Source: Primula veris (Eukaryota > Streptophyta > Magnoliopsida > Ericales > Primulaceae). Taken from it: 64,000 nt of DNA. The number at the start of each line of letters is the position of its first letter. Within the stretch, counting starts at the first letter, position 1. The stretch lies in the NCBI GenBank assembly GCA_963682055.1, contig OY821740.1, forward strand, positions 11,184,814 through 11,248,813. The letters are read 5' to 3'. The notes under the pieces are model-generated. The model was not told the origin of the DNA and made no database searches. It saw only the letters and a list, made by a program, of their open reading frames with translations. Positions 11,801 through 62,270 of the stretch are shown here, in pieces. Both the position numbers and the translations under genes were made by a program.

Positions 11801-12666
11801 GATAACCATTTCGGATAGAAGACCTCCCTTATGGCTCCAGCCTCTAATAGCTTGTGGACCTCAGCAATTATAGCTGCCCTGTGCTGTACACACACTTTTC
11901 TGCTCCTCTGAGCTATCGGTTTGCACTCGGCATCAACACTCAGGTGGTGACATGCCGTTTTAGGGTCTAGGCCTAGCATGTCTTTAGGGCTCCAGGCGAA
12001 TTTATCAATGTTGTTGAAGAGGAATGCTTCTAACTCTTCGGATTCCTGTTTTGGAAGGTCATCCCCGAGGAGGAAGTAGTGCTCCTCGTCCATACCCGGG
12101 ATATACACCTTCCTAAGAGTTTTTCCTACTTGTTCTTCGACAACCCTATCGGTTTTGGCTATGTGGTTGATCAGCTTCTTTCTGTTGGTGGGTTGTTCGA
12201 CAAAGTTCAGCTGTTTTTGAAGGGCAGTGGTAATGTCCTCACAGCGTCTTGAATCTTCCTGACATCCTCTGGCTGTCTCGATCTCTCCCCGATCATTTGG
12301 GTATTTGACTTTTTGGTGGTAGGTCGAGGGTATGGCCTTCATGGTGTGAAGCCAAAGTTGACCCAAGATCGCGTTGTGGCCGGAGTTGTTGTTTACCACT
12401 AAGAACTCAACGGGAACTGATACGGATCCCGTAGTGACACTTATGACGATCTTTCCCAATGGTTTAGTTGTCTCGGAGATGAACCCGATCAGTGTGACAT
12501 TGGTAGGCTGTAGATCTTGTAGCTTGAGTTCCATCTTGTCGAAGAGTTCTCTGTACATGATATCACAAGAGGCTCCTTGATCGACAAGCACCCTGCTGAC
12601 CGTGTCAAGGCCTATTTGAACACGGAGGTTGATGGCGTCCCTGTGGGGGTAAATCACCCCTTCTTA
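8893..12666 (-). pseudogene. pol: Tat-type pol: protease, RT, two RNase H domains, integrase (broken)
   Basis: The main open frame is 12657-9841 (938 codons), and the same frame continues to a stop at 8893-8895. In order: protease with LVDQGASCDIMY (residues about 25-36, an unusual DQG for the D-T/S-G motif) and AILGQLWLH; reverse transcriptase with YIDD near residue 400; a first, degenerate RNase H around 530-660; a second RNase H from about 677 (HVDGSATKDGSGAG, TNNEAEYEA, HADALA); then an H2C2 zinc-binding region and an integrase core with its D, D and E in VATDYF, VADNGTQ and GNGQAEV. Three in-frame stops interrupt it: TAA at 12664-12666 just before the protease, TAA at 9841-9843 and TAG at 9616-9618. 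The copy therefore cannot make a full integrase. No chromodomain is seen. Confidence 0.9.
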
Positions 12667-12746
12667 GTCCAGATCCGAGAAGCAAATGGGCGGATGTCGT
12701 CGCGGCGTGCATTGTCGCTCGGAGGTCGACGCCTGTGATGCCTTGG

Positions 12747-14826
12747 CTACCTGGCCAAAGTGTGCCAGTTTCCGTTGTCACGATCGTTCCCCACCCGTGC
12801 CCTTGGGTCGTGACATATGAACGACGTTGATTGTTTTGCCTTGTTGTCGGCTCCCTCAATGGCCAGTTGTTTGCCTTTATTTCCGACGCCTTTGATGAAC
12901 TTGGCCAGGTATCCCGCATCGCCCCACAGGTTCATTTTCCACCGCAGGTTACGGAAGTGCTCGGTGAGGTGTCCGTAGTCCTCGTGATAGGCGCAGAAAA
13001 GCTTGGGGTCTCTATGCTCAGGGAGGTAGCGAGCGGCTCTGGCCGTGAATACCAGCTTTCTCTGCGGATATTCTTGAGGATATCTTCAGCCGACAGGTTG
13101 AAAGAGTATCTCAATTCGACCAGTTCGAAGCTCTTTTGCTTTTCCCTTCCCTGGAATCGGCCTTGTTGTGACTGCTTGGTTGGTACAGGGTAGGTGAGCT
13201 GGAGGGGTTTATGCTCGTTGATCGGTGTTGGGTATGCGATCTGGAGCGGTTTGGGCTCAGGTTCTCGTGGTCGCTCTACCCTGCTATGGACCTCGGGACC
13301 TTTGTCCTTTCGGGTCAGTTTGAATGTTTCTCCCTGGTTATTTCTAACTCTTTTGCGACCCACCTGTGCCTCTTGGACCGATTCTCTTCTTGGTAGACTT
13401 CGGTTGAGGATACGCAGTTCGTCGTTTTTATCGGTGAGGTGGGTACAATAGGCTAGCAGGGAATCAGTGGTCGGAAAATTTTTGCCTATGAAATTCCTTC
13501 TCGCCCAATAGCTATTAGGGATGGAGTTGATAAAGTTCTGGATGGCTATATTACTGGCGTACTGTGGAATCTGGTTTGCTACGTCGATGAAACGTATGCA
13601 GTAGTCGTTGAGCCTTTCATTTGGCATCATCGTCATTTTTAGAAGGGTTTCAATACTAACCTTCTTCTTTCGATGAGCAGCGTATCGGGTGGAGTATGCT
13701 CTTAGCAGCTCCGCCCAGTTTCTTATAGAGCCCCGTGGTAAGTTATGGTACCACGATGAAGCCTCTTGGCCCAAACTGTTCTTGAAAAACTTGCACATCA
13801 TCGCATGGTCATCACTCCACAGCTCCATCTTCGTCTTGTAGTGCCTTAGATGGTCAATGGGACAACTCCTTCCATCATAGAGCCTGAACTCGGGGATGAC
13901 GAACCCCACAGGATTGCGGTATCGCGTGATCTGTTCGGTACATGGGGTTTCTTGGCATACGTTCCAAGCCTGTTGGAACGCTTCATCCGTGGCTTGGTAG
14001 GGGGGGTGTATCCCCCCTGTTGTGGTGGTGGGCCGTATCCTCCCCCGATCATGTGTTCGGGATACCTATCGTCCTTCGGGTTTCTGTCGAGGACATGTTC
14101 CGTATGCGCGTTTGGGTGGACGAAGGTCGGAGGGATTGTTATCAGGACGTTGCCCCCTTGATGGGGCACTTCTTGATCTGGTCGCCGGCCCGCCGCTTCC
14201 AAGGCGGCCCTATAGGCGGAATCTTCTGCTTCACGACGTGGATCTTTGTCTGCGTTGGCAGGTTGAGTACCCGGCAGTCTGATGCCGGCCGCTGCCATGG
14301 CCGTCATACACGCTGCCAGCTGAGCTTGCAGCTGGGCGTTGTTCCTTTCATCAGCTATTGGAACGATGTGTTGTACTTCCACCGTGGTTGGTGTAATCAT
14401 CCTTGGTGGGTGAGTCGGTAATCGGGGCAACTGTTCAAGTTCATGACCTTCAGGCATACCAAGCCGGTCAGCTTCGTTTGTTTGTAAACGGGCACCAGAG
14501 TTGACTGAGGCCGTTGGCAAAGGGACTCTTGAGCTCGGTCCTGCCTGGGATCCGGGTATGCGTCTTCTTGCGCGCCTTAGTACGGGCAAGGCTTGTTCGT
14601 CTTCCGAGGACGTTTGGTATTCTTCGACGATCCCTTCAAGCTGTTGGGGTTGTTCGATCGGTTGTTCTCGGTGGACATTGGAGGTTGTCGGTTGGTTTTC
14701 GGACTGGATAGCGTCGTATCTATCGCGGATGGCGAGTAGATCGTCGAGGTCTTGTTGGCTAATCTGCACGTGTTGGTTATTGGTTTCTACTATCTCGGGA
14801 TGGGTTTCTTCTATATTGGTCACCAT
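12747..14826 (-). pseudogene. gag: Tat-type gag (frameshifted)
   Basis: The start is ATG at 14826, 62 bp downstream of the primer site. The first frame (14826 to about 13915) is a polar, Pro/Gln-rich region. A one-base loss near 13912 moves the frame to 13909-12932, which holds the retrotransposon gag core (SLGQEASSWYHNLPRGSIRN...LRAYSTRYAAHRK...MMPNERLNDYCIRF). A second shift near 13020-13060 is needed to read the zinc-knuckle-like FCAYHEDYGHLTEHF, in which the expected last Cys is missing. A short frame, 12935-12747, continues to the pol boundary. Gag packages the element RNA; this copy is disabled. Confidence 0.85.
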
Positions 14827-25393: not shown

Positions 25394-27170
25394 TCTAAGG
25401 TCTCGTATTTTCATAAATGGTTTTATTTATAATTTAATCTATCCAAAAACGTTTTATACAATTTTTAGCCAAAAACCGAAACTTTTCCGAAAAACTTTAG
25501 TTTAAAAACCTGTTAGTAATTTTATAAATAAAAAGAAACCAATAGTTTTGTTTCTAAACATTTGTTATTTTTGAGCAGTAAAATAATATTTTTGATTTTT
25601 AGTTAACTTTTAGAACTTTGGCGACCAAATATTTCGCTTCCCCAAACTCTCTCAAAACAGTTTGTTAAACCTCTTTTCAGCCCACTAACAAAGAGAGAAA
25701 AGAGAGAGAAGAGAGGTTCCAAACCCTAGGAAGAAGAAGAAAAAAAAAGAAGAGAAAACCACCATTAGCGGGTTCTTACCGGAAGCATCTCCTCTACGCT
25801 CTCAGATAACGGGGGTTATCCATTGCGACTAGACGAGAGTGTATGTTAGGATTAGGTCTTGCGATTGTTTTAAATTGGAGGTTTTTGACTTTTATCTTAA
25901 TTATGTTCTTAAATCGTTAATTGAGTTTTATGTGTTATATCTTTAATTCACTTAATTGAATTGTAGAAGTTGAGAAATTAGACTTATTAATTTCGAATTA
26001 ATGAGTTTATGGTTGGGTTTGCGTGTTTTATGAGTTGATTATGTGATATTATAGTTGTTGATGAAATTGGATAATTTTATGTTGAATATAGATGAATTGT
26101 AGTTTATAAATATAAGGTGTTTGTTAAAATGTCTGAATGAGATTTATGTTGTTGACTTGTTTGGCTAGTTGTGAATCTAGTACCTATGCTTATGTGTTAT
26201 GTTGAATTACGTTAAAGAGACGTATGAGAATTTGATAATTGAATGGTTTTATATTATTGGCCGAGGCCTTGTGATTTAGATTAGTGGCAATGGTCTGTGT
26301 CTCTTCCTATACCGGGGACATAAAACGGTCGAGGGGATAGGGAATGACTCGTCTTACGGACTGGGACGAGTGGCGTGAGAGGTCCTAGTATGCACTTTAT
26401 TTATTTTTATGTTAGCAATGGTCTATGTCTATTCCTATACTGGGGACATAAGACGGCCGAGGGGATAGGGAATGACTCGTCTTACGGACTGGGACGAGTG
26501 GCGTGAGAGGTACAAGTACGCACTTTAAATCTAATTTTTTGTTAGCAATGGTCTATGTCTCTTCCTATACCGGAGACATAAGACGGCCGAGGGGTATAGG
26601 GAATGACCTAACTTATGGACTGGGGTAGGTGGCGTGAGAGGTCCATGTTTGTGATAGATGTGTGTGGAAGTTATTTAATTTATTTCGTTGTATGATGTTA
26701 TTATATTTCTTTTTATACGTCGATTATCGTAGTTGTTGTTAGTGAGTTCTTGCATTTATGGGATGGAGTGACGGTATTTTGTGGTGTCGTCCCGTCTATG
26801 TATGTGCGTGGGACTCACCGTTACAGTTTTGTCTTTCATGTACAACTTAGGTTGAGGCGTTTGGATAATAGCATTAGCGATGTATCGCATGGGCTCGGGG
26901 CTTCTTTCAGTTGCATTCTTTTAGTTAGACCATTTTTGAGTTGTAGCCTACGGGAAAATTATTCGTTTGACATTCTTTTTTTATAAATCTGTTAAACCAT
27001 TTTGTCTTGTAGCCATGTTTGGCAAATACTTTTATTTATTGTTTAATTGTTCCTTTAGCTCGCAAGTCTTTTTCTTTTAAAAGTTAAATTTTGTACCAAC
27101 ATCTTCTTTTTCCTTTTATTCAAAAGGTCACGCTTTGATGCCCGTGTTTTTCTGATTTTGGGGCGTGACA
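25394..27170 (+). mobile_element. solo LTR of a Ty3/gypsy element (1777 bp)
   Basis: It begins tctaaggtctcgtatttt (a diverged TGTAACATCCCG start) and ends GGGGCGTGACA. It is flanked by the perfect 5-bp duplication AGACT (25389-25393 and 27171-27175). It aligns by eye over its whole length with the LTR at 59421-61295. No internal element sequence follows, so the body was lost by recombination between LTRs. Confidence 0.85.
26285..26655 (+). repeat. three tandem units of about 128 bp inside the solo LTR
   Basis: Each unit starts gcaatggtctatgtct, runs through gggacataagacggccgagg, gaatgactcgtcttacgg and gacgagtggcgtgagaggtc, and ends before an AT-rich spacer. The third unit has a changed middle (gacctaacttatggactggg). 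The same three-unit arrangement is present at 60420-60785. Confidence 0.85.
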
Positions 27171-28165
27171 AGACTTATCTAAAGAATCAGAAAAAATAAT
27201 AACAATAAGAAGAAGAAAAATGAAACTTATAAAAGTTTGATTCTGTCTTCGGAAAATATTTTTTAGCATTCCAAAAAAAGATTGATTCTAATTTCTCGTC
27301 AAGTCCTTGCTTAATACTACATTTCCTTAAGTTGAGGTTCAATAACACGAGCCGATTTGACAAGAAACGAGGAGAGAACTAAGTTGGAGCTGGCAGGGGC
27401 TACAGTCCCCCCATATTTTTACAATGCAAATTTTTTTTATAACGAAAATAGCAATTTACTCCGTCCATATTGATTTTTTAAAATTCAGCCTCCACATCTA
27501 GTGATATTGGCTCCGCCACTACAAGAAACCCGAAGTTTTTTTGGTTGTTGTTCTTTAATTAAGTTGCATGTTTCTTAGCACAATCGTTTACTCATCCATT
27601 ACTTGCACAGTTGCATGCTCTTTTACCAGAGATGGTTCTGAGCCTGCGCAAACAGTGCTTGTGCACATGACCATATGAAAAATAGGGCCTAAAAATTCTA
27701 TTTGTAGCTATTTACTCCTATAAATTTATATATATATATATATATTATTAAATAGGAAATTTTAGTTTTATTTCAGCTGTATTGTGGCATATTGATTGTA
27801 GGTAAGGTTAAACTGGGGTTTCTTTTTAATTATATTTAAGAGATGAAGAATAGTGTTTCGATCCTTTATATATAAAGTTAATAAGTCATACAATAGTCAT
27901 TTTATATACTAATAAATTAAGAATGCCAACTAATGTATATTCTTTCATTTTTTCCTTGCAAAACATGAAGTATAAACTAACAATTGAAGTGCTAATATTG
28001 AAACTTTTTTTGAACTCTTTCGTCTCTAAATAACCTCAGTGATTTGTTAAGAAAATGCTTTTTTTTTTAATTTTTGCACCGAGACTTAAAATTTGCAGAA
28101 CCGGCCCTGTTTTTAACCTGTGACCGTAGTTAGATGACGTAGCGTACTTGCTATACCGACGACTC
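27171..28165. other. intergenic between two retroelements
   Basis: No gene seen. 27385-27525 looks like a remnant of a small DNA element with GC-rich ends (ggcaggggctacagtccccc ... ggctccgcc). A lone cactacaagaaac at about 27518 resembles a CACTA end. A (TA)n run is at about 27727-27746. Confidence 0.45.
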
Positions 28166-29428
28166 TGTTAGGACCAGATTTCTGGTCTAAATATTGTTAA
28201 TTGTCTATTGGTTTTTACTAAATAAATCCTAACTGTTATTAATAACTAAGACAGGATTGACAGGTTCCAAGTACCAGTTGCAACCTCAGTTACAACCTAC
28301 TAAGTTAGTAGTATTAGGTTTCAAGTACTGGTTGCAACCTAAGTTACAACCTGTGGTGACAGGTTTCAAGTACCAGTTGCAACCTCAGTTGCAACCACAG
28401 TTCAACCTGCTGTTAAAACAGAATTCTGTCTTGTTTCATTATTCTACATTACTACTTGTTTGATGCTAATCATTTGTTTTAAAGAATGTAGGATATATTC
28501 TCATAAGGTCTTAAACGTGTATATGTGTTTATTGAGAATATTAATGTGTTAAGGAAAGATGTTTTATAAAAGATATAAAGAGATTAGTTTATAAGGTTAT
28601 GTTTCCTTTTAATATATATATCTCTATTCTTATGCTTGTCCTTATCACTTGTTTCAATCTTTTGATTCTTGTAATATTCAGTAAAGATATGTATAAAGAT
28701 TGATTGATATGTGGAGTTAAATGTTTCATATGTTTATGAAAAGATATTATCTTTAAAAGATCATATCTTTATATGTTTCCTTTCAAAGGAAAAGATTAAC
28801 TCCTACTTTCAAGTGTGTTACTAAACAGGTATTAATCAAAGATGATTAGAGTCAATCCATGCTGAAGAATCTCGTGATACTTGGAGAGATTGAAGCTAAT
28901 CAACCAAGTCAAAAGCAATCAAAAGATATTGAAGATAGAAGATTGTTTTTACTTGTTTATATACTTAGTAACCTAAGCTTGTAAAGGTGTGTGTTCTAAA
29001 TTATAAAGAACTTATTTTCTAGAGAGAATACACGTGAGCTTTAAAAAGAAAAACAATGGTGGGATGCCATTGATTTATAAGTGATAGTTATAGAGTAGGA
29101 GCAATATAGTGATAGGCAGAAAAACATAGAGGGAGTCTAAGTTTTTCATTAAGACTTGAGTCATATATTGTAAGCTTTTTATAATATCATAATCTGGGTA
29201 AGTGCCCCGGAGACGTAGCCTAGTTAGGTGAACTCCGTTGTTAAATGTGCGTGTGAGTTATTTCCAAGTACATTTAATTTTCAAACAGTTTCTGTCCATT
29301 AATACACTTGGTTCCAACTGCAGTTCCAACCTCACTTGAAACCTTATACACTTGGTTCAAACTGCAGTTCCAACTCCACTTGGAACCTTACTGCAAAACT
29401 GCATCTAGAACAGCGGATAGGAATTTCA
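28166..29428 (+). repeat. 5' LTR of the copia element
   Basis: TGTTAGG...AATTTCA. Near both ends it carries runs of the GTTNNAAC motif at 12-bp spacing: about 28257-28412 (three clusters) and 29309-29390 (two clusters). Confidence 0.95.
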
Positions 29429-29430
29429 TT

Positions 29431-29442
29431 TGGTATCAGAGC
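29431..29442 (+). promoter_or_regulatory. primer-binding site, initiator tRNA-Met
   Basis: TGGTATCAGAGC, two bases after the LTR end; the standard copia primer site. Confidence 0.95.
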
Positions 29443-29487
29443 TTCACACTAGATCTTACTTAGTGTGGATCCTGTGTTCTAGTAACA

Positions 29488-32400
29488 ATGGACTTAATGA
29501 GGGAAGGAAACGCCTTCAACAAACCTCCATTGCTTGAAGGAGGAGTAAACTATGGAGTATGGAAAATTAGAATGAGGTCCTTCATCAAACAGCAGAATGA
29601 ACATGCATGGAAGACTGTTATGTATGGATGGGAGGCTCCAACTACCATGGATAATGAAGGAGAACTGATTCTCTTACCTGAAGACAGATGGTCTGCTGAA
29701 GAAGACAGAAAATCAAGTGCCAACTCAACAGCCATAAACTTGATTTTTGCTGGTGTAACTCTCAGCGTATTCAGGTATATCTCTCATTGTGAAACAGCTA
29801 AAGAAGCATGGGATATTTTGCAAGTTACTTTTGAAGGAACAACTAAAGTAAAAGCTTTCAAACTTCAACAGTTAACTACCCAATTTGAGAACTTAAGAAT
29901 GGAGGAAGATGAAAACATTGAACAATTTAATGGTAGAATCTGCCACATTGCTCATCAAGCTGGAACATTAGGTGAAAAATACAGTGATGCTAAGCTTGTT
30001 AAGAAAACTCTTAGGTCACTCCCAGAAAGGTTTGAAATTAAGGTCACAGCTATTGAAGAATCAACTGACTTAGATAATCTTAAACTTGAAGAACTCATAG
30101 GAAATCTTAGTACACATGAACTGAAATTCTTCAAACATAAAAGACCAGAAAAGGGAATAGCATTTCAAGCTAAGAAATCTGAATCTAATACCTGTGATAA
30201 AATGAGTGATGAAGAACAACTAGCTTTCTTTGCAAAAAAGGTGTACAAGAAGTTTTATAAGAAAAAGGAGGATGATACTGGTTCATCTAAAAACTTTCAG
30301 AAAAAGGATAACCAGTTTAAGACAGAGTCTAGATTCAATAATAACTCTACAGGAAAGTGGAATTCCAAAGAAAAGGATAACAAAGAATACAAATCTAAAG
30401 AGATTCAGTGTAGAGAATGTAGAGGTTTTGGTCATATTCAGGCTGAGTGTGCAAACACTTTAAAAAGAAACAAAAATGCTTATATAACCACTCATAGTGA
30501 TAGTGATTCTGAGAGTAACAGTGATGAAGAGGATGGTTCAAATTTTGTTAATTTCATGGGAATAATCACTGAAAAAGAACCTACTTATGAAAGTGACTGT
30601 GAGCATGTTTCAACCCCAGTTACAACTGCCTGTGAAACATATAGCAGTGATGAGGAAGAGCCCTCTGATGAAAACATTACTAAGCAATACCTTGTTCTGT
30701 ATGAAAAATATAAAAGTCTGAGTAAACAATGTTTGATCATAAGCAAGCTGAATGTTGATCTAAAGGATGAGGTCAAAAATCTTACTGAGAAGCTTAAATT
30801 ACAACTGGCTGAACTTACTGAAACTAAAAAGATAATAAAATTGCTGAATGTCTCTGCTTCAGATAAATTAGATGACATGCTGTCATATTCTAGAGGATCC
30901 AAAGATATCAGTGGTCTAGGGTACTATGGTGGTAAGAGTACAGGAAAAACTACTTTTATTGAAGCAGTTGCTAAAGCTAAAACTCATGATTTTGATCACA
31001 AGGTTAGAAGCTCAGTTGCAACCAGAGTTGCAACCAGGAATAAAACGCAGGTTTATGTAAAGAAGGTTGGAAGCTCAGTTACAACCAAAGTTGCAACCAT
31101 GAACAAACTGAATAACTTTAGGTTGAAATTGTGCAATTTTTGTAAAAAACCTGGTCATTCTGAAGTCCAGTGTTATTTAAAAAGGAACAGAAAGTACATT
31201 TCCCAGAAAACCTGGTTGGCTTCTGTCAATAAAAATTTGAAATGGGTTTGGAAAGTTAAAGAAAAAGCAATCTTAGTTGCTAACAACAAAGCTGTTATCA
31301 ACTCTTTGAATGCTGTTACTTCTAATGATTGGTATTTTGACAGTGGATGCTCTAAGCATATGACAGGTACTGCAAGCCTCCTAAAAAATGTCACCATTCT
31401 TACAGGTAACACTGTTGTGTTTGGAGGAGGAGATACAGGTAAAATTATTGGTAAAGGTACCTTAAACAAACCTGGAATGCCTGATATTGAGGATGTTTTT
31501 CTTGTAGATGGTCTAAAAGCTAATCTAATTAGTATCAGTCAACTCTGTGATAATGAAATGACTGTTAAATTTGACAAAGAAAGGTGTCTAATTACTAATC
31601 TTAACAATGATTTAATCATGACTGGAGTTAGATCAACCAACAGTTGCTATGTGTTTGAAAAAGCTGAAAAAGAATTGCCTCAAAGTAGGTGTAATCAAGC
31701 TATTTCTAATAATGCAGATATTTGGCATAAAAGGCTTGGGCATGTGAATTACAAAACTTTAGATAAGCTTGTTAAAAAAGAGTTGATAAGAGGAATTCCT
31801 AAACTTAGTGCTAAAACTCAAAGTGTCTGTGGTGATTGTGCTATAGGAAAACAAACCAAAAGTATACACAAAAGTACTAGTCTAATCTACACTAAAAGAG
31901 TCTTAGAACTTCTTCACATTGACTTGATGGGTCCTATGCAAACTGCCAGTATAGGTGGTAAGAAGTACATTCTAGTAGTTGTAGATGATTTCTCTAGATA
32001 CTCTTGGGTAGTGTTCTTAAAGGATAAGTCTGAAACTTTTGAACTATTCAAAACTCTGTGCTTAAAACTGCAAGTTGAAAAAGGTTCCACTAGTGGTAAT
32101 ATTGCTAGGATTAGAAGTGATCATGGAACTGAATTTGAAAATATCAGGTTTAAAGAATTCTGCAACTCCTTAGGAATATGTCATGAGTTCTCTGCTCCTA
32201 AGACTCCTCAGCAAAATGGCATAGTTGAAAGGAAAAATAGAACCATTCAGGAAATGGCTAGAGTAATGCTTAATTCTAAGAAACTTGCCAATAGATTTTG
32301 GGCTGAAGCTGTTAATACTGCCTGTCATATAGTTAATAGAGTTTATATTACTAAAGGTACTTCCATGACAGCTTATGAAATATGGAAAGGAAGAAAACCC

Positions 32401-34476
32401 AATGTAAAGTATTTTCAAGTGTTTGGATGTGTTTGCTATATTCTCAGAGATAGAGAGCATCTTGGTAAATTTGACTCTAAAAGTGATAAAGGAATTTTTC
32501 TTGGTTATGCTCAGAACAGTAGAGCATTTAGAGTCTTCAATCAAAGAACAAACTGTGTTATGGAATCTTATAATGTGTTATTTGATGATCTAAAAACTGT
32601 TGATGAGATTACAGGTGATAATGAACAGGCTGAGACTACAGAAAAAGAGAAAGAAGAAACACAACAAACTGGAAGTCCCAGAGTGGTTGGAAGTCCAGTT
32701 GCAACTGAGGTTACAACTGAGGTTGGAACTGAGGTTGGAACCACAGTTGAAACCCAAAATGCTGCTGAATCTGAAGAAGAAGAAGAAGAAAGTTCTCATG
32801 CTCAGTCAACTAGCAGGCCTCGCTATGTAAGGACTCAGAAAAATCATTCTCTTGACAATGTCATAGGAGAAGTTACTTCAGGTATGAAAACCAGAGGTAA
32901 AAGAAATAATGTTGTTCACTTTGCTTGTTATATCTCTCAGTTAGAACCTAAGAATATAAAAGAAGCTCTAGAAGATAGTGAATGGATTTTAGCTATGCAG
33001 GATGAATTGGCCCAATTTGAGAGAAATGATGTATGGACTTTAGTACCCAGACCTTCTAATAAAAATGTTATAGGAACTAAATGGATTTTTAGAAATAAAA
33101 GTGATGAGGATGGAGTGATTATCAGGAATAAAGCTAGGTTGGTAGCTCAGGGTTATACACAAATTGAGGGAATTGACTTTGATGAAACCTTTGCTCCAGT
33201 AGCTAGAATTGAATCCATTAGAATGCTGCTGTCTCTTGCATGTCTGTATGATTTTAAACTGTTTCAACTTGACATAAAGAGTGCTTTTCTGAATGGTGTG
33301 ATTAATGAAGAAGTTTATGTTTGTCAACCTAAGGGATTTGAGGATCCTAACTTTCCTGAACATGTCTATTTGTTGAAAAAGGCCTTGTATGGTCTAAAAC
33401 AAGCTCCTAGAGCTTGGTATGATAGATTAACCAAGTACTTGATTGAAAAAGGTTTTAACAGAGGGGGAGTTGATAAAACTCTGTTTACTAAGAAAACCAC
33501 AAAGGACATAATAATTGCTCAAATCTATGTTGATGACATTGTTTTTGGTTCTACTTCTAATAACAGAATAAAAGAATTCATTTCTGACATGAAGAATGAA
33601 TTTGAAATGAGTGGAGGAGGTGAACTAACTTACTTTCTAGGATTGCAAGTAAAACAGAATGAGAAAGGCATCTTTCTGTGCCAAAGTAAGTATGCAGACA
33701 ATCTTGTTAAAAAGTTTGGTCTGAGTGAGAGTAAAGAGAAGAGAACCCCTATGAGTACTACCCTTAAACTGTCCAAAAATGATAAAGGTAAAAATGTCTG
33801 TCCCAGTCTTTATAGATCCATGATTGGAAGTTTGCTGTATTTAACTGCTAGTAGACCAGATCTTTGCTTAAGTGTAGGAGTTTGTGCCAGATATCAAGCA
33901 AATCCTTTAGAACCTCATCTTCTAGCTGTCAAAAGGATTCTAAGGTATGTAAAAGGAACACCTCATCTAGGCCTATGGTATTCTAAAGATACAAACCATT
34001 TTCTTAGTGGCTACTGTGATGCAGATTGGGCAGGAAACATAGATGATAGAAAGAGTACTTCTGGAGGTTGTTTTTATTTTGGAAACAATCTTGTTTCTTG
34101 GTTCAGTAAAAAGCAAAATTGCATATCTTTATCTACTGCTGAGGCAGAATATGTTGCAGCTGGAAGTGGATGCACTCAACTAATTTGGATGAAACAAATG
34201 TTAACTGATTATAATGTTAAACAAGAGATATTAACTCTGTTTTGTGATAACAAAAGTGCTATAGATTTAGCTAAAAATCCAGTTCAACATTCCAGAACCA
34301 AACATATTGATCTAAGGCATCATTTTATTAGAGAACTAGTTGAAGAAAAGAGCTTAATTTTAGAACATGTTTCAACTGAAAGACAATTAGCAGATATTTT
34401 CACAAAGCCCCTTGATACAAACAAGTTTGAATCATTAAGAAGTGACATAGGGGTATGTCATTATCAATCTAATTGA
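29488..34476 (+). CDS. gag-pol: copia gag-pol polyprotein, intact (1662 aa)
   Basis: One uninterrupted frame starts at the first ATG after the primer site (MDLMREGNAFNKPPLLEGGV). In order: gag N-terminus with GVNYGVWKIRM; gag core (about 60-230); a CCHC knuckle at about 307-322 (CRECRGFGHIQAEC); a coiled coil at about 400-460; a second CCHC at about 548-561 (CNFCKKPGHSEVQC); protease with DSG near 617; pre-integrase HxxxH-C-x2-C (LGHVNYKTLD...CGDCAIGK); integrase with D in HIDLMG (about 811), D in RSDHGTEF (about 877) and E in NGIVERKN (about 914); reverse transcriptase with YVDD near 1347; RNase H with YCDADWAG near 1508 and ADIFTKPLD at the end. All catalytic residues are present. Two stretches (about 509-538 and 1070-1091) are made of V-x-T repeats coming from the 12-nt motif described in the findings. 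Confidence 0.95.
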   Translation: MDLMREGNAFNKPPLLEGGVNYGVWKIRMRSFIKQQNEHAWKTVMYGWEAPTTMDNEGELILLPEDRWSAEEDRKSSANSTAINLIFAGVTLSVFRYISHCETAKEAWDILQVTFEGTTKVKAFKLQQLTTQFENLRMEEDENIEQFNGRICHIAHQAGTLGEKYSDAKLVKKTLRSLPERFEIKVTAIEESTDLDNLKLEELIGNLSTHELKFFKHKRPEKGIAFQAKKSESNTCDKMSDEEQLAFFAKKVYKKFYKKKEDDTGSSKNFQKKDNQFKTESRFNNNSTGKWNSKEKDNKEYKSKEIQCRECRGFGHIQAECANTLKRNKNAYITTHSDSDSESNSDEEDGSNFVNFMGIITEKEPTYESDCEHVSTPVTTACETYSSDEEEPSDENITKQYLVLYEKYKSLSKQCLIISKLNVDLKDEVKNLTEKLKLQLAELTETKKIIKLLNVSASDKLDDMLSYSRGSKDISGLGYYGGKSTGKTTFIEAVAKAKTHDFDHKVRSSVATRVATRNKTQVYVKKVGSSVTTKVATMNKLNNFRLKLCNFCKKPGHSEVQCYLKRNRKYISQKTWLASVNKNLKWVWKVKEKAILVANNKAVINSLNAVTSNDWYFDSGCSKHMTGTASLLKNVTILTGNTVVFGGGDTGKIIGKGTLNKPGMPDIEDVFLVDGLKANLISISQLCDNEMTVKFDKERCLITNLNNDLIMTGVRSTNSCYVFEKAEKELPQSRCNQAISNNADIWHKRLGHVNYKTLDKLVKKELIRGIPKLSAKTQSVCGDCAIGKQTKSIHKSTSLIYTKRVLELLHIDLMGPMQTASIGGKKYILVVVDDFSRYSWVVFLKDKSETFELFKTLCLKLQVEKGSTSGNIARIRSDHGTEFENIRFKEFCNSLGICHEFSAPKTPQQNGIVERKNRTIQEMARVMLNSKKLANRFWAEAVNTACHIVNRVYITKGTSMTAYEIWKGRKPNVKYFQVFGCVCYILRDREHLGKFDSKSDKGIFLGYAQNSRAFRVFNQRTNCVMESYNVLFDDLKTVDEITGDNEQAETTEKEKEETQQTGSPRVVGSPVATEVTTEVGTEVGTTVETQNAAESEEEEEESSHAQSTSRPRYVRTQKNHSLDNVIGEVTSGMKTRGKRNNVVHFACYISQLEPKNIKEALEDSEWILAMQDELAQFERNDVWTLVPRPSNKNVIGTKWIFRNKSDEDGVIIRNKARLVAQGYTQIEGIDFDETFAPVARIESIRMLLSLACLYDFKLFQLDIKSAFLNGVINEEVYVCQPKGFEDPNFPEHVYLLKKALYGLKQAPRAWYDRLTKYLIEKGFNRGGVDKTLFTKKTTKDIIIAQIYVDDIVFGSTSNNRIKEFISDMKNEFEMSGGGELTYFLGLQVKQNEKGIFLCQSKYADNLVKKFGLSESKEKRTPMSTTLKLSKNDKGKNVCPSLYRSMIGSLLYLTASRPDLCLSVGVCARYQANPLEPHLLAVKRILRYVKGTPHLGLWYSKDTNHFLSGYCDADWAGNIDDRKSTSGGCFYFGNNLVSWFSKKQNCISLSTAEAEYVAAGSGCTQLIWMKQMLTDYNVKQEILTLFCDNKSAIDLAKNPVQHSRTKHIDLRHHFIRELVEEKSLILEHVSTERQLADIFTKPLDTNKFESLRSDIGVCHYQSN

Positions 34477-35503
34477 ATACTTTTGCTAAATATGTCTGTA
34501 TTGAGTACCTTTAATAAGTTTTATTTCCAAGGTTAAAGTCTTATTTTGAGCTATGATGTTTTTGTCTTGAAAAAGCCGCTTTTTTGGTGCCTCAAAAACA
34601 GATGTGAGGTAACTTGTCCTTAAAAAACCTCTCTGGTAATAGAGTTGCAAGCACAAAGTGCAATTTTTTTTGATGGTGGTTGCAAGTTCAGTTGCAACAT
34701 CAGTTGAAACCTCACACTTTCAATAGTTGGTTGGAAGTTCAGTTGCAACATCAGTTGAAACCTCGTGTTAAAAATACTGGTTGCAAGCTCAGTTGCAACA
34801 TCAGTTGAAACCTCGTGTTAAAAATACTGGTTGCAAGCTCAGTTGAAACATCAGTTGAAACCTCAGTCTCTGTTATAGCTGTCAAGACAAAGTCTTGTAA
34901 AATTTTGACATCACTTATACTCTTTCCTTGCTGAGGTCATCAAACTAGTTTTTGTGTAGAAATAAAAACGGAATTGCTCATTTTAAGCTCCTAAAATTTA
35001 ATCTTTATTAGTGTTATTCTTTGATAAACATATTTTCGTGAGTAAATTGCTAGATTTCTTTTGTTCTCCTAAAAGCTAGATATCTGTTTTAGTTTTGTTT
35101 TTATCTTGAATCAAGTCAAATTTCCTTAAAGCTTCAATGTTTGATTTTTCAAATTTTGGATGAATCTGTTTTGAAAAAGGAATGTTTATCTGTTTAATTG
35201 GCTGAAGTTATCTTATTGCCAACTGTTTCTTGCGTAATCTTAGTATGATTTTCTTTTAAAATCTGTTGATATAATACTTCCTATGTTTAAGCCTAAATTT
35301 GCTGCTTAATTGATTTGCATGTATCTATTTCCAATTTCAAAAAGATATGGTCTTTATTGCTATTTATACAAACATCTTTTTACTATCCAAAATCAATTAC
35401 TTTTTACAGAATAACTCTCTCTCTCTCATCTCTGTAAAACCCTAGGCTTGCTGTAGAAACCCACTGCAAGGTTCTAAGTAAGGTTCTAACCCCAGTTGCA
35501 ACC
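34477..35503 (+). other. spacer between pol and ORF2 with motif array and leader-like sequence
   Basis: 34677-34865 is an array of GTTNNAAC units in four groups (e.g. GTTGCAACatcaGTTGAAAC). Closer to ORF2 come tatttata (about 35360), a CT repeat (ctctctctctc, about 35416-35427), aaaaccctagg (about 35437-35447, a telo box) and another motif pair ending seven bases before the ATG. The order TATA-like, CT-rich, telo box, ATG looks like a plant gene 5' end. Confidence 0.6.
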
Positions 35504-36790
35504 ATGTCATCAATCCCTTCTAAAAACCCCAATTCTGATGATGATTGCACCCTCAGAGATTTTATGAATAAATCTCCATCACGTCAAGGTTCCAAATCAA
35601 AGGTAAGTGAGTCTTCCTCACCCAAAATTAAGCGCACTAAGAAGCGTGCTAGAAGGAATTTTGATAATGACCCTGTTACTGCTAAGTTTGAGTATGTTCC
35701 AACAAACAATAATGTTGATCCTCGTTTCTGGAGTAGGACAACATATAGGAGGTTTAGAGGAATGGCTAGTAAAGAAATTCTGTGTGAAAGAAGGCTTAAT
35801 TTAGTTAGCTATCCTCACATACAGGTGTATGTTGAGAAATTACTCTCTGCTGTTGGATTAGCCAAAACTGTTTGTTATGCAGACTCCTATTACCCTGCTG
35901 TTGTTAAAGAATTCTATTCCAATTTAAGCAGTGGTGTCTTTGAAGAGGGTAATCCTAAGTATGGAAGAGTGTTTTTGAGAGGTGTAACTTTGGATTTCAC
36001 ACCTAAGTTGATTAATGACTATCTGTGTTGTCCCAGTCCTACTATAGACAACAATGCTGAACCAGATTTAGAAATTCTAGCTTTAATTCTAACTGGAAAG
36101 AACAATAGGTTTGATGGTCATTCCATCAAAACATCCTCTCTCACATTAAGTGCTGCTGTGTTGCACAAAATTGCTAGGTTTAACTGGACACCCACCAAAC
36201 AATCTTCCAAAGTCAACAAAGATATGGCTATTTTTCTATACAGGATTATGTCTTCACTACCCATCAACCTTGGCCTTCATATCTTTAATCTTATAAAGGA
36301 ATTTAGTGATGATAATTCACCTTCCATTCTGCTTCCTTTCCCTTGCCTCATATCTAGTCTACTTCTGGGCCAAGTCTCTTCTATGCATAGAGATTCTCCC
36401 ATTAGTATCACTCATGAACCAATCACAGATTGTCCCTCTGCTCTTTATATTTCTGCCAAACTACTGAAGGAAGGACATGTCAATGACATTTCTGGGGACA
36501 AAGGGAAAGAAAAGGAAGAAGAACCTTCATCTGCTCCTTCAGCAAAGAAGAAAGGAGTAAAGTGGTACTTACTCCAGAAGCTGGCTTATAATCAAGAAAG
36601 GAGAGCTGAATTGGATGCTGATGATTATCAAATCAATAAGCTGCTGGTGGACATTATTGAGAGTGAGGATGATGATGATAGTGATGGTGTCTCAATCAGC
36701 AGTGAGGATGACAATGAAGAAGATGAAGAAGTGGTCAGGCAGAATCCTCTAAGAGAAAGACCCCCACAATGTGATATTCCAAGTGACTAA
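35504..36790 (+). CDS. second ORF of the copia element, 'putative plant transposon protein' domain (428 aa)
   Basis: Intact frame in the sense direction. Residues 1-55 are polar with a basic, nuclear-localisation-like patch (KIKRTKKRARR). Residues about 60-300 form a globular region with YYPAVVKEFYSNLSSGVF, GRVFLRGVTLDFTPKLINDY and PCLISSLLLGQ, which resembles the 'putative plant transposon protein' domain (PF20167) common in plant genomes. Residues about 325-350 are Lys/Glu/Ser-rich. The last 60 residues are strongly acidic (ESEDDDDSDGVSISSEDDNE). I see no signal peptide or membrane helix, so this is not a typical env-like protein. Position after pol and before the polypurine tract is that of the extra ORF in SIRE-type elements. 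The function is unknown; a nuclear, nucleic-acid-related role is only an inference. Confidence 0.8.
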   Translation: MSSIPSKNPNSDDDCTLRDFMNKSPSRQGSKSKVSESSSPKIKRTKKRARRNFDNDPVTAKFEYVPTNNNVDPRFWSRTTYRRFRGMASKEILCERRLNLVSYPHIQVYVEKLLSAVGLAKTVCYADSYYPAVVKEFYSNLSSGVFEEGNPKYGRVFLRGVTLDFTPKLINDYLCCPSPTIDNNAEPDLEILALILTGKNNRFDGHSIKTSSLTLSAAVLHKIARFNWTPTKQSSKVNKDMAIFLYRIMSSLPINLGLHIFNLIKEFSDDNSPSILLPFPCLISSLLLGQVSSMHRDSPISITHEPITDCPSALYISAKLLKEGHVNDISGDKGKEKEEEPSSAPSAKKKGVKWYLLQKLAYNQERRAELDADDYQINKLLVDIIESEDDDDSDGVSISSEDDNEEDEEVVRQNPLRERPPQCDIPSD

Positions 36791-37157
36791 TTCCATTGGT
36801 TGCTGACAAATAGGGGGAGTGAAGTTTGAAGTTTGAAGTTTATGCTTTTGTTTTATGTTTTGTTTCATTTTGATGTTTTCAAGACTTTAAATCTGTTTTT
36901 CAATTCTGCTGTATTAAGACAAGTTTATGCTTGTTTGGCTTTAATCATTCTGCAATTTCTTTCTGCAAATATCTTGATATCTTGTTGAAGTATGAAAGCT
37001 TTAAACTTGAAACAGGTCTGAAAACTAATTGTGTGCACATACATTGTGCTTATATATTTTGCCTGCAATTCTAACATACAGGGGGAGCTTACTGATATGG
37101 AATTTGCAGGTGGTTGGGATGATTTATAAACTTTATTGATTTGTCAAAACCAATGAC
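36791..37157 (+). other. 3' untranslated region of the copia element
   Basis: Non-coding, T-rich. The purine phrase gggggag occurs three times (about 36812, 37081 and at the polypurine tract). Confidence 0.5.
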
Positions 37158-37168
37158 AAAGGGGGAGA
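37158..37168 (+). promoter_or_regulatory. polypurine tract
   Basis: AAAGGGGGAGA directly before the 3' LTR (one T between). Confidence 0.85.
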
Positions 37169-37169
37169 T

Positions 37170-38432
37170 TGTTAGGACCAGATTTCTGGTCTAAATATTG
37201 TTAATTGTCTATTGGTTTTTACTAAATAAATCCTAACTGTTATTAATAACTAAGACAGGATTGACAGGTTCCAAGTACCAGTTGCAACCTCAGTTACAAC
37301 CTACTAAGTTAGTAGTATTAGGTTTCAAGTACTGGTTGCAACCTAAGTTACAACCTGTGGTGACAGGTTTCAAGTACCAGTTGCAACCTCAGTTGCAACC
37401 ACAGTTCAACCTGCTGTTAAAATAGAATTCTGTCTTGTTTCATTATTCTACATTACTACTTGTTTGATGCTAATCATTTGTTTTAAAGAATGTAGGATAT
37501 ATTCTCATAAGGTCTTAAACGTGTATATGTGTTTATTGAGAATATTAATGTGTTAAGGAAAGATGTTTTATAAAAGATATAAAGAGATTAGTTTATAAGG
37601 TTATGTTTCCTTTTAATATATATATCTCTATTCTTATGCTTGTCCTTATCACTTGTTTCAATCTTTTGATTCTTGTAATATTCAGTAAAGATATGTATAA
37701 AGATTGATTGATATGTGGAGTTAAATGTTTCATATGTTTATGAAAAGATATTATCTTTAAAAGATCATATCTTTATATGTTTCCTTTCAAAGGAAAAGAT
37801 TAACTCCTACTTTCAAGTGTGTTACTAAACAGGTATTAATCAAAGATGATTAGAGTCAATCCATGCTGAAGAATCTCGTGATACTTGGAGAGATTGAAGC
37901 TAATCAACCAAGTCAAAAGCAATCAAAAGATATTGAAGATAGAAGATTGTTTTTACTTGTTTATATACTTAGTAACCTAAGCTTGTAAAGGTGTGTGTTC
38001 TAAATTATAAAGAACTTATTTTCTAGAGAGAATACACGTGAGCTTTAAAAAGAAAAACAATGGTGGGATGCCATTGATTTATAAGTGATAGTTATAGAGT
38101 AGGAGCAATATAGTGATAGGCAGAAAAACATAGAGGGAGTCTAAGTTTTTCATTAAGACTTGAGTCATATATTGTAAGCTTTTTATAATATCATAATCTG
38201 GGTAAGTGCCCCGGAGACGTAGCCTAGTTAGGTGAACTCCGTTGTTAAATGTGCGTGTGAGTTATTTCCAAGTACATTTAATTTTCAAACAGTTTCTGTC
38301 CATTAATACACTTGGTTCCAACTGCAGTTCCAACCTCACTTGAAACCTTATACACTTGGTTCAAACTGCAGTTCCAACTCCACTTGGAACCTTACTGCAA
38401 AACTGCATCTAGAACAGCGGATAGGAATTTCA
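37170..38432 (+). repeat. 3' LTR of the copia element
   Basis: Same length as the 5' LTR; one difference seen (t at 37423 for c at 28419). Confidence 0.95.
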
Positions 38433-54149: not shown

Positions 54150-54440
54150 CTAATAAAATCGTTCCAATGAATCTCGATCCATCGAAATATAGTCCGATCG
54201 ATCGAAAATGGTCCAAAAAGTTCCAGTGAATCTCGATCCATCGAGCTATAGTCCGATCGATCGAAAATGGTCCAAAAAGTTCAAGTGAATCTCGATCCAT
54301 CGAGATATAGTCCGATCGATCGAAAATGGTCCAAAAAGTTCCAGTGAATCTCGATTGATCGAGATTCAGTCCGATCGATCGAAATTACAGCAGTACATTT
54401 TTTCTCCAGAAATCTCGATCGATCGAGATTCAGTCCGACT
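54150..54440. repeat. 59-bp tandem repeat with CGATCGATCG palindromes
   Basis: The phrase tccgatcgatcgaaa recurs at 54193, 54252, 54311 and 54370 (period 59). Each unit also has a second partial palindrome, ctcgatccatcgag or ctcgatcgatcgag. Inside the CACTA element. Confidence 0.9.
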
Positions 54441-55953: not shown

Positions 55954-57008
55954 TGTTAGGACCAGATTTCTGGTCTAAATATTGTTTATTGTCTATTGGT
56001 TTTCACTAAATAAATCCTAACTGTTGTTAAGAACTAAGACAGTATTGACAGGTTTCAAGTACTAGTTGCAACCTCAGTTACAAACTACTAAGTCAGTAGT
56101 GATAGGTTTCAAGTACCAGTTGCAACCTCAGTTGCAACCTAAGTTCCAACCTGCTACTCAGCAGTAATCTGTCTAGTTCTATAAATCTGCATAGCTGTTT
56201 ATTATTAATTACTAACTGTTCTACAGCAAAGATTGATTGTTATCATATTCAGTTATCATTTATTATTAATCTGCATAGACAGTATTGGACCTTATCATAT
56301 TCAGTTAAGATACGTTTAAAGATTGATTGTTATATGGAGTTAAATGTTTCATATGTTTATGGAAAGATATTATCTCTAAAAGATATTATCTTTATATGTT
56401 TCCTTGTTACAGGAAAAGACTAACTCCTACTTTCAAGCTTGTTGCTAAACAGGTATTAAACCAATGATAATTGGAGTCAATCTACGCTGCAGTATCACGT
56501 AATACATGGGAAGATTGATGACCAATCAATAAAGTCAAAAGCAATCAAAAGATATTGAAGATAGAAGATTGTTTTTACTTGCTTATATACTTAGCAACTT
56601 TAGCTTGTAAAAAGTGTGTGTTCTAAATTATAAAGAACCCATTCTTGAGAGAATACATGTGAGCTTTAAAAAGAAAACAATGGTGGGATGCCATTGATTT
56701 ATAAGTGATAGTTATAGAGTAAGAGCAATATAGAGATAGGCAGAAAAACCTAGAGGGAGTCTAAGAGTTTTTCATTAAGACTTGGGTCCTATATTGTAAG
56801 CTTTTTATAATATCATAATCTGGGTAAGTGCCCCGGAGACGTAGCCTAGTTAGGTGAACTCCGTTGTTAAATGTGCGTGTGAATTATTTCAAAGTACATT
56901 TAACTTTAAACTGTTCTGTCCATTTATACACTAGGTTCTAACTGTGGTTGCAACCTCACTTGGAACCTTACTGCAAAACTGCAACTAGAACAGCGGATAG
57001 GAATTTCA
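55954..57008 (+). mobile_element. solo LTR of the copia family (1055 bp)
   Basis: TGTTAGG...AATTTCA, flanked by the perfect duplication TAAAC (55949-55953 and 57009-57013). It aligns with the LTR of the element at 28166 but is shorter by about 200 bp, with many substitutions. It keeps GTTNNAAC clusters at about 56050-56150 and 56935-56965. Confidence 0.88.
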
Positions 57009-61295: not shown

Positions 61296-61298
61296 AGT

Positions 61299-61949: not shown

Positions 61950-62270
61950 AAGAAAACGATCGGTCGTATGCCTCTTTCGATCGGTCGAATTTCTTCAGAC
62001 CCTACTGGTCAGTTTTTGACCAAAAACGATCGGTCGTTTGCCCAAAACGATCGGTCGAAATTTTTCTGACCTCACTGGAAGAATTTTTACCAAAAACGAT
62101 CGGTCGTTTGCCCAAAACGATCGGTCGAATTTTTTCAGACATCACTTGAAGGAATTTGACCAAAAATGATCGGTCGTTTTCCCAAAACGATCGGTCGAAT
62201 TTTTGGTGACCTCACAGGAATGATTTCGACCTAAAACGATCGGTCGTTTTGTCCAAAACGATCGCTCGTG
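61950..62270 (+). repeat. 70-bp tandem repeat with CGATCGGTCG
   Basis: caaaaacgatcggtcgttt recurs at 62021, 62091, 62161 and 62231 (period 70). Each unit has a second, near-inverse cgatcggtcgaa about 20 bp further on. It lies in the leader between LTR and gag. Confidence 0.9.

What the first reader, a model, noticed from the sequence alone, without database searches (positions are those of the whole stretch)
28257..38400. A 12-nt-period palindromic motif, GTTNNAAC-NNNN, seeded through LTRs, gag-pol, spacer and the ORF2 start of one copia element
Seen: the 8-bp (near-)palindrome GTTGCAAC and variants GTTACAAC, GTTCCAAC, GTTGAAAC occur in runs with exactly 12-bp spacing at about 28275-28412, 29309-29390, 30606-30630, 31014-31045, 31074-31103, 32697-32752, 34677-34865, 35487-35500 and again in the 3' LTR. 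Inside gag-pol it is in frame and makes V-x-T-x repeats in a polar linker region. The same 12-nt rhythm in coding and non-coding DNA cannot be explained by protein selection alone. Inference: binding sites for an element- or host-encoded protein, an RNA packaging/structure signal, or a mobile 12-mer spreading within the element.
Basis: partly seen in the sequence, partly recalled or inferred. Interest (0 to 1): 0.88.

Follow-up and report, generated by a model that had tools for sequence, protein, structure and literature searches.

The report
Retrotransposon with binding-site-like triplets throughout
A young plant jumping gene carries the same short mirror-symmetric DNA word in evenly spaced groups of three, in its control regions and inside its own protein-coding gene, where the DNA letters themselves appear to be kept by selection, as one would expect of docking sites for a protein.

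Summary
The element (28166-38432) is a young Sirevirus-type copia retrotransposon. Units GTTNNAAC, with preferred flanks R and Y, repeat at 12 bp, usually as a polar triplet with one altered end: GTTNNAAG-N4-GTTNNAAC-N4-GTTNNAAC. The exact triplet occurs 8,251 times in the host genome, the reversed pattern 0 times. In relatives it sits at fixed addresses: U3, U5 (inverted), three polyprotein linkers, the spacer, and before the ORF2 ATG. Inside gag-pol, fourfold-degenerate third bases that are motif letters changed in 3 of 232 comparisons, against 865 of 3,248 elsewhere: nucleotide-level constraint over coding sequence. Free bases do not covary and some triplets are inverted, which favours binding of double-stranded DNA over an RNA stem. 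A second Sirevirus-type family in the same genome has an unrelated ORF2 sequence and another palindrome. Closest known: Sirevirus repeated motifs (Bousios 2010) and, by logic, VANC targets. New here: the capped triplet grammar and its place in coding sequence. The reading protein is unknown; ORF2 is the best testable candidate. Other plant species could not be searched.

The parts
28166..29428 (+). 5' LTR, 1263 bp, one mismatch to the 3' LTR; 5-bp target duplication GACTC
28264..28297 (+). U3 triplet 1 (capped unit GTTCCAAG, 13 nt before the pair)
28318..28351 (+). U3 triplet 2 (cap at 13 nt)
28363..28408 (+). U3 triplet 3 (cap at 13 nt) with a decayed fourth unit
29310..29343 (-). U5 triplet 1, inverted
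   Evidence: 20 of 20 fixed letters on the minus strand
29354..29387 (-). U5 triplet 2, inverted
   Evidence: 20 of 20 fixed letters on the minus strand
29488..34476 (+). ORF1, gag-pol, 1662 aa
30606..30639 (-). gag-pol site A (aa 374-): inverted; two exact units in this copy, third decayed; exact inverted triplet in 4 of the 19 relatives read there
31002..31035 (+). gag-pol site B1 triplet (aa 506-)
31065..31098 (+). gag-pol site B2 triplet (aa 527-)
32685..32754 (+). gag-pol site C (aa 1067-), six units with the cap; linker between the SH3-like domain after integrase and RT
34678..34711 (+). spacer triplet 1, kept in position in relatives
34729..34762 (+). spacer triplet 2
34779..34812 (+). 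spacer triplet 3
34829..34862 (+). spacer triplet 4
35470..35503 (+). triplet ending at the base before the ORF2 ATG, same phase as the gag-pol modules
35504..36790 (+). ORF2, 428 aa, PF20167 (Transposase_32), function unknown
36812..37167 (+). three AGGGGGAG polypurine tracts (36812, 37080, 37160) before the 3' LTR
37170..38432 (+). 3' LTR
37268..37412 (+). three U3 triplets of the 3' LTR
38314..38391 (-). two inverted U5 triplets of the 3' LTR
55954..56970 (+). second, diverged LTR of the same family (86-92% identity in pieces) with modules at 56052-56151 (+) and 56934-56967 (-)

Best explanation
The motif is a composite recognition module on double-stranded DNA for a sequence-specific protein. 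Each 12-bp unit is a dyad-symmetric site built on GTTNNAAC. Three units in register, with one altered end half-site, form a polar docking platform. The platform is repeated at fixed addresses in U3, in U5, in three polyprotein linkers, upstream of ORF2 and at the ORF2 start. Most likely it lets one regulator mark the whole element: it switches on the LTR and ORF2 promoters, and possibly keeps the body free of silencing. Shown here: the grammar, the fixed addresses, the constraint on synonymous bases, absence from the six other copia loci sampled, and a different palindrome in a second Sirevirus-type family. The confidence below is for the DNA module whoever reads it.
For: Exact triplet 8,251 times in the genome, reversed pattern 0. 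Spacing 302 at 12 nt against 2 at 13 and none at other distances below 24. Cap at exactly one end in 107 of 126 distinct arrays from loci chosen by ORF2, never at both ends. Motif-letter third bases changed in 3 of 232 fourfold comparisons, against 865 of 3,248 elsewhere and 189 of 776 nearby; by site 3 of 25 against 34 of 71 nearby (Fisher p 0.001) and 169 of 272 in the rest (1e-6). In the module before ORF2, diversity is 0.06 at motif letters and 0.43 to 0.55 at the central and inner linker bases. 30 of 30 ORF2 loci have an exact triplet within 3.5 kb and a unit abutting an ATG at the ORF2 start. 6 of 6 stretches (5.3-8 kb) of other copia lineages have neither triplet nor pair. Family 2 has a PF20167 ORF2 without BLAST similarity to this one and a CGACCGATCG palindrome upstream of ORF2 and in U3.
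Against: No binding, expression or methylation data. Module copies exchange sequence (fusions), so homogenisation could contribute to the invariance. T-codon third bases just outside the motif letters were also low (8 of 105). Of five non-coding modules tested, two tandem spacer triplets show no motif-specific conservation (0.25 and 0.43), one could not be scored, and the first spacer triplet lies beside a stretch that is just as conserved. 19 of 126 arrays have no cap. Only 24 of 30 ORF2 loci keep a full (relaxed) triplet at the start. Only one other ORF2-bearing family was examined. U5 RNA folds unusually well. Bousios et al. report near-identical repeat motifs in very distant elements, which also suits a host factor.
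Confidence: 0.62

Rival explanations
1. Same DNA module, but the reader is a host transcription factor (for instance a MYB-type protein; the commonest unit contains CAGTTG, and the MYB match is recalled, not searched), which the element exploits as an enhancer. This overlaps with the best explanation, which leaves the reader open.
For: Bousios et al. found stress-factor sites in repeated motifs and near-identical motifs in unrelated elements of distant plants. U3 and spacer arrays lie upstream of TATA-like sequences (TATAAAA 28565, TTTATACA 35363).
Against: A host enhancer alone does not explain sites in U5 and in three polyprotein linkers, nor why another Sirevirus-type family in the same nucleus uses a different palindrome. 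No host binder was tested.
Confidence: 0.35
2. RNA-level signal: the modules are packaging, dimerisation or structure elements of the genomic RNA.
For: U5 folds better than shuffles (z -4.27, 0 of 200 shuffles as good); the other seven stretches range from -0.69 to -2.57. The synonymous constraint would also arise from RNA.
Against: Free bases facing each other do not covary beyond shuffles (nine comparisons). U5 and site A are in the opposite sense to the rest. The two-triplet U5 hairpin is not general: some relatives have a single U5 triplet. No Rfam match at gathering scores.
Confidence: 0.12
3. Neutral minisatellite or gene-conversion product: a 12-mer that duplicates and spreads within the element without function.
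For: Unit number changes in 12-nt steps at site C, and B is duplicated as a 63-nt block, in triplicate in L067. Modules took part in recombination.
Against: Motif letters are held while adjacent free bases and synonymous sites change. In the part of ORF1 read only three addresses are used. The end cap is maintained.
Confidence: 0.06
4. Recombination adaptors: modules in one reading phase serve as template-switch points for shuffling element parts in frame.
For: Two pol-less gag::ORF2 in-frame fusions in two ORF2 clades, both joined inside module B2 x pre-ORF2 module.
Against: This needs only similarity, not the exact 12-bp dyads, the cap or inverted copies; two events were seen. Probably a by-product.
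Confidence: 0.05

Closest known systems
Sirevirus repeated motifs (RM) of Bousios et al. 2010, PMC2829016 (section 9 read whole, other passages by search)
   Same: Palindromic boxes in many copies per element, in the LTR and in the linker upstream of the envelope-like gene, in two of their elements also at that gene's start.
   Different: Here the half-site is GTT/AAC, not CGG/CCG (their Tnd-1 also lacks it); no CpG enrichment in the LTR (CpG o/e 0.25); 12-bp register with a polar cap; copies in U5 and within gag-pol. The passages seen describe RMs only in the LTR, the linker and the ENV start.
VANC / VANDAL anti-silencing system of Arabidopsis, PMC5735166 (passages) and PMC10398659 (abstract and section list)
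   Different: VANDALs are DNA transposons (recalled) and their motifs lie in non-coding regions; binding and demethylation are shown there, not here; ORF2 matches PF20167 in Pfam, and relation to VANC was not tested.
Second Sirevirus-type family of the same genome (L084, L086, L092)
   Same: Sirevirus-type pol (53% identity over 1010 aa), a PF20167 ORF2, palindromic repeats upstream of ORF2 and in U3.
   Different: Palindrome CGACCGATCG at mostly 21/49-bp spacing; ORF2 not BLAST-similar (E 0.25); none of its repeats in the part of pol read (L084).

Membership tests
Ty1/copia, Sirevirus type | copia order of domains (gag, integrase, RT) | tested here: met
   Pfam order in ORF1
Ty1/copia, Sirevirus type | several identical AGGGGGAG tracts before the 3' LTR, the last followed by AT and the LTR's TG | tested here: met
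   36812, 37080, 37160 and the junction GGGGGAGATTG; that Sireviruses have multiple identical octamer tracts is from passages of PMC2829016, the octamer's letters are recalled
Ty1/copia, Sirevirus type | C-rich integrase signal about 21 bp from the LTR end (17 elements in the paper) | tested here: inconclusive
   no C-run in the last 40 bp by eye; consensus not available to me
Ty1/copia, Sirevirus type | placement among Sireviruses in an RT tree with named references | not testable with these tools
   no named plant elements held
Sirevirus repeated motif (RM) | palindromic, at least eight copies, in LTR and upstream of the envelope-like gene | tested here: met
   28 of 30 ORF2 loci have an exact triplet in the spacer
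Sirevirus repeated motif (RM) | CGG-CCG core and CpG islands | tested here: not met
   GTT-AAC core, LTR CpG o/e 0.25; 12 of 13 published RMs have the core, Tnd-1 does not
Sirevirus repeated motif (RM) | confined to non-coding DNA and the ENV start (as described in the passages seen) | tested here: not met
   three gag-pol sites: A in 9 of 11, B in 10 of 12, C in 17 of 17 covered loci (relaxed pairs)
VANC-type anti-silencing target | target motifs in non-coding regions | tested here: not met
   gag-pol sites as well
VANC-type anti-silencing target | TE-encoded protein binds the motif and removes DNA methylation | not testable with these tools
   needs EMSA/ChIP and methylomes
VANC-type anti-silencing target | related families differ in motif together with the putative reader | tested here: inconclusive
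   true of the two families compared; n = 2

The most novel reading that the evidence does not exclude
ORF2, the so-called envelope-like gene, is a self-targeting DNA-binding activator or anti-silencing protein (VANC-like logic in an LTR retrotransposon). The element has written the protein's capped triplet binding sites into its own polyprotein gene, so that the whole body, not only the promoter, is marked. Sites and ORF2 turn over together between families that share one nucleus.
Probability: 0.27. Interest if true: 0.9.

Novelty: new variant of a known kind. Interest (0 to 1): 0.68.

Why it matters
The role of the extra ORF of Sirevirus-type elements is an open question as far as I know (recalled), and the 2010 paper proposes a regulatory role for the palindromic motifs but calls for experiments. 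A motif with an exact grammar, a built-in polarity and synonymous-site constraint gives a sharp probe: if ORF2 binds it, the envelope label would need revision and anti-silencing logic would extend to retrotransposons. If a host factor binds it, it is a strong case of a regulatory code overlaid on a polyprotein gene.

Tried and rejected
Protein selection alone: rejected. RNA stem: disfavoured. Freely spreading 12-mer: disfavoured. Sharing of family 2's palindrome with a gypsy element (window 61953-62268, beside a gag-like ORF): first suspected, then dropped, because similarity to the family 2 LTR extends beyond the palindromes (68% over 349 bases), so it looks like an old LTR fragment. Structure of ORF2: single-sequence model unusable; no fold search made on it. 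Literature search for the literal string GTTGCAAC gave 412 papers, 40 listed, none of the 40 titles about this subject. The triplet in the viral contigs gave 5 matches, taken as background and not analysed. Searches behind the statement that I found no report of coding-embedded repeated motifs: (listings) and PMC2829016 (section 9 and passages). The supplements of that paper and the 2016 maize palindrome paper were not seen (the latter not held).

Not done: the variable-gap spacing search of the whole genome and the genome-wide count of family 2's palindrome, because the machine was busy each time (see below).
Full report
WHAT IT IS. The finding lies in one LTR retrotransposon at 28166-38432: LTRs of 1263 bp with a single mismatch between them, target duplication GACTC, primer site TGGTATCAGAGC, and AGGGGGAG tracts at 36812, 37080 and 37160 before the 3' LTR. 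ORF1 (29488-34476, 1662 aa) has copia gag, integrase and RT domains in that order. ORF2 (35504-36790, 428 aa) matches only PF20167, a family of unknown function. The near-identical LTRs mean a recent insertion (inference). Sirevirus type is my reading from the polypurine tracts and the extra ORF; no reference tree could be made.

GTTNNAAC occurs 67 times in the window against 23.5 +/- 4.1 in shuffles. The element has 22 pairs at 12 nt, against a mean of 0.003 in 300 shuffles. In 59 stretches totalling 266,630 bases (window included) pairs occur 302 times at 12 nt, twice at 13 and never at another distance below 24.

THE GRAMMAR. The unit is GTTNNAAC with a preference for a purine before and a pyrimidine after it. 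In 127 distinct triplets with flanks, the base before units 1, 2 and 3 is A or G in 123, 96 and 124, and the base after them is C or T in 122, 101 and 120; the outermost pair is G in 114 and C in 114 (these triplets were selected on the motif letters, so only flanks and free bases are informative). The usual form is three units, of which one end unit reads GTTNNAAG. To avoid selecting on the cap, I counted arrays of three or more units (at most one letter off per unit) only in loci fetched by ORF2 (L031-L079): 107 of 126 distinct arrays have exactly one capped end, 0 have two and 19 have none. Of 123 single-letter deviations in these arrays, 107 are this one change. All stretches together give 135 of 161. 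Before a pair, on both strands of the same loci, the cap lies at 12 nt (145) or 13 nt (38); the remaining 24 lie at 24 nt, two units away. The first unit of an exact triplet ends AAG in 137, AAC in 84, AAA in 3 and AAT in 2. The 13-nt form is the one in U3 of this element.

GENOME-WIDE. The exact triplet is found 8,251 times in the host genome (4,101 and 4,150 on the two strands); the same pattern read backwards is found 0 times. The first 30 matches, in contig order on C1, form nine separate stretches, and all nine match the LTR, ORF1 or spacer of this element; where the other matches lie was not examined one by one. Six stretches of 5.3 to 8 kb from other copia lineages (33-53% identity to ORF1), picked from 150 RVT_2 matches, have no triplet and no pair; they need not cover whole elements.

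FIXED ADDRESSES. A PF20167 search scored 150 of 1,526 candidates. In the best 30, whose ORF2 is 58-98% identical to this one (some shortened), 30 of 30 have an exact triplet within the 3.5 kb read and 28 of 30 have one in the spacer. All 30 have a unit, [GC]TTNNAACC, directly before an ATG near the ORF2 start; 24 of 30 have a relaxed full triplet there. I fetched 2.8 kb of gag-pol from 19 of these 30 loci (roughly aa 150-1130). There, relaxed pairs within ORF1 occur at only three addresses: A (aa 374-378) in 9 of 11 loci covering it, B (506-537) in 10 of 12, C (1067-1087) in 17 of 17 (one of the 19, L066, has no ORF1 match). Site A is an exact inverted triplet in four of these loci; here its third unit has decayed. 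Site C has three or four units in several of the more divergent copies, up to seven in one and six here, a change in 12-nt steps that keeps the frame. The modules are in one reading phase (V-x-T, V-x-S at the cap) in the copies aligned.

SELECTION ON THE DNA LETTERS. In that phase the third bases of GTT and of NNA are motif letters that the protein does not need. Comparing the window with 18 loci, fourfold-degenerate third bases that are motif letters changed in 3 of 232 comparisons, against 865 of 3,248 in the rest of the ORF1 read and 189 of 776 within 40 codons (permutation p 5e-5). By site, 3 of 25 vary, against 34 of 71 nearby (p 0.001) and 169 of 272 elsewhere (p 1e-6); for GTT codons alone, 1 of 14 against 18 of 23 (p 3e-5); for NNA codons 2 of 11 against 34 of 52 (p 0.005). 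The copies are related, so the p values are optimistic. Third bases of the module's T codons, just outside the motif letters, were also low (8 of 105). In non-coding DNA, the window and 20 loci (near-identical ones and one fusion removed) show diversity 0.06 at the motif letters of the module before ORF2, 0.43 at its central bases, 0.55 at inner linker bases and 0.20 in the rest of the spacer. The first spacer module is similar (0.016 against 0.11 to 0.30), but a neighbouring stretch without triplets is just as conserved, so this one is not specific. Two further spacer copies do not show the contrast (0.25 and 0.43) and one could not be scored; I suspect misalignment of tandem copies but did not prove it.

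WHY DNA BINDING RATHER THAN RNA. The unit is a dyad with free centre and free linkers; U5 and site A are inverted relative to the other sites; and in nine comparisons on 85 distinct cores facing free bases pair no more often than in 2000 shuffles (the nearest, 51 against 46.9, is reached by 127). As RNA, U5 folds well (z -4.27) and the other seven stretches range from -0.69 to -2.57, as palindromic repeats will. Rfam has no match at gathering scores. RNA binding by a protein is not excluded.

A SECOND FAMILY IN THE SAME NUCLEUS. L084+L086 and a second copy L092 (99% identical to L086) belong to another Sirevirus-type element: pol 53% identical, with its own PF20167 ORF2 (53 bits) that BLAST cannot align with this one (E 0.25). 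Instead of GTT triplets it carries CGACCGATCG, four copies before ORF2 and six in U3, mostly at 21 and 49 bp. So ORF2 and palindrome differ together. That is what a family-specific reader predicts, but it is one comparison.

HOW IT MOST LIKELY WORKS. Shown: a capped, phased array of dyads at fixed addresses, with motif letters held in gag-pol and before ORF2 while neighbouring bases change. Inferred: a dimeric or multimeric protein docks on it with polarity and marks the element along its length, driving the LTR and ORF2 promoters and perhaps opposing silencing. ORF2 is the best candidate (about one in three), a host factor the main rival. The ORF2 model from a single sequence was unusable.

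KNOWN KINDS. Bousios et al. 2010 (PMC2829016) described palindromic repeated motifs in 13 Sireviruses, in LTRs and upstream of the envelope-like gene, 12 of 13 with a CGG-CCG core (section 9 read). This finding looks like such a feature with a different core, a strict grammar, and copies in U5 and gag-pol; two of the published features are not met, so I call it a variant and not a member. The VANC system (PMC5735166, passages) is the functional analogue, with motifs in non-coding regions. In what I saw I found no report of such motifs inside gag-pol; most subscription papers were not searchable.

SIDE RESULT. Two natural pol-less copies carry gag fused in frame to ORF2, each joined between module B2 and the module before ORF2, in two ORF2 clades. 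The shared phase makes such joins in-frame. I take this as a by-product of repeated sequence, not the function.

Noticed in passing
L084 2319-5301, L086 270-415, 543-1682, 2640-2880; L092: Second Sirevirus-type family with a different palindrome (CGACCGATCG at mostly 21/49 bp) before its own PF20167 ORF2 and in U3.
   Followed up: partly
window 61953-62268: 70-bp array of CGATCGGTCG, the inverse of family 2's palindrome with the same 21/49 spacing; probably an old inverted family 2 LTR fragment beside a gag-like ORF at 62599-63204.
   Followed up: partly
G000:C1:2861744-2869387 and L045: Natural pol-less copies with gag joined in frame to ORF2 at module B2 x pre-ORF2 module.
   Followed up: partly
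G000:C1:2837276-2842704: A copy whose ORF1 end is 96% identical to the window (364 aa) while its LTR is 82% and its ORF2 39% (89 aa) identical: mosaic or very uneven evolution.
   Followed up: no
window 34610-34660: Spacer stretch almost invariant in the window and 20 loci, outside the triplets; cause unknown.
   Followed up: no
window 25927-27172 and 60001-61297: Two 81% identical stretches, each with a 128/129-bp tandem repeat (26287-26642, 60422-60781).
   Followed up: no
window 54161-54384: 59-bp array with TCGATCGATCG-like dyads and CCAGTGA, resembling family 2's repeat context.
   Followed up: no
window 9841-13909, minus strand: Gypsy-type element pieces: pol with RVT_1 and RNase H, and a Retrotrans_gag ORF.
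   Followed up: no
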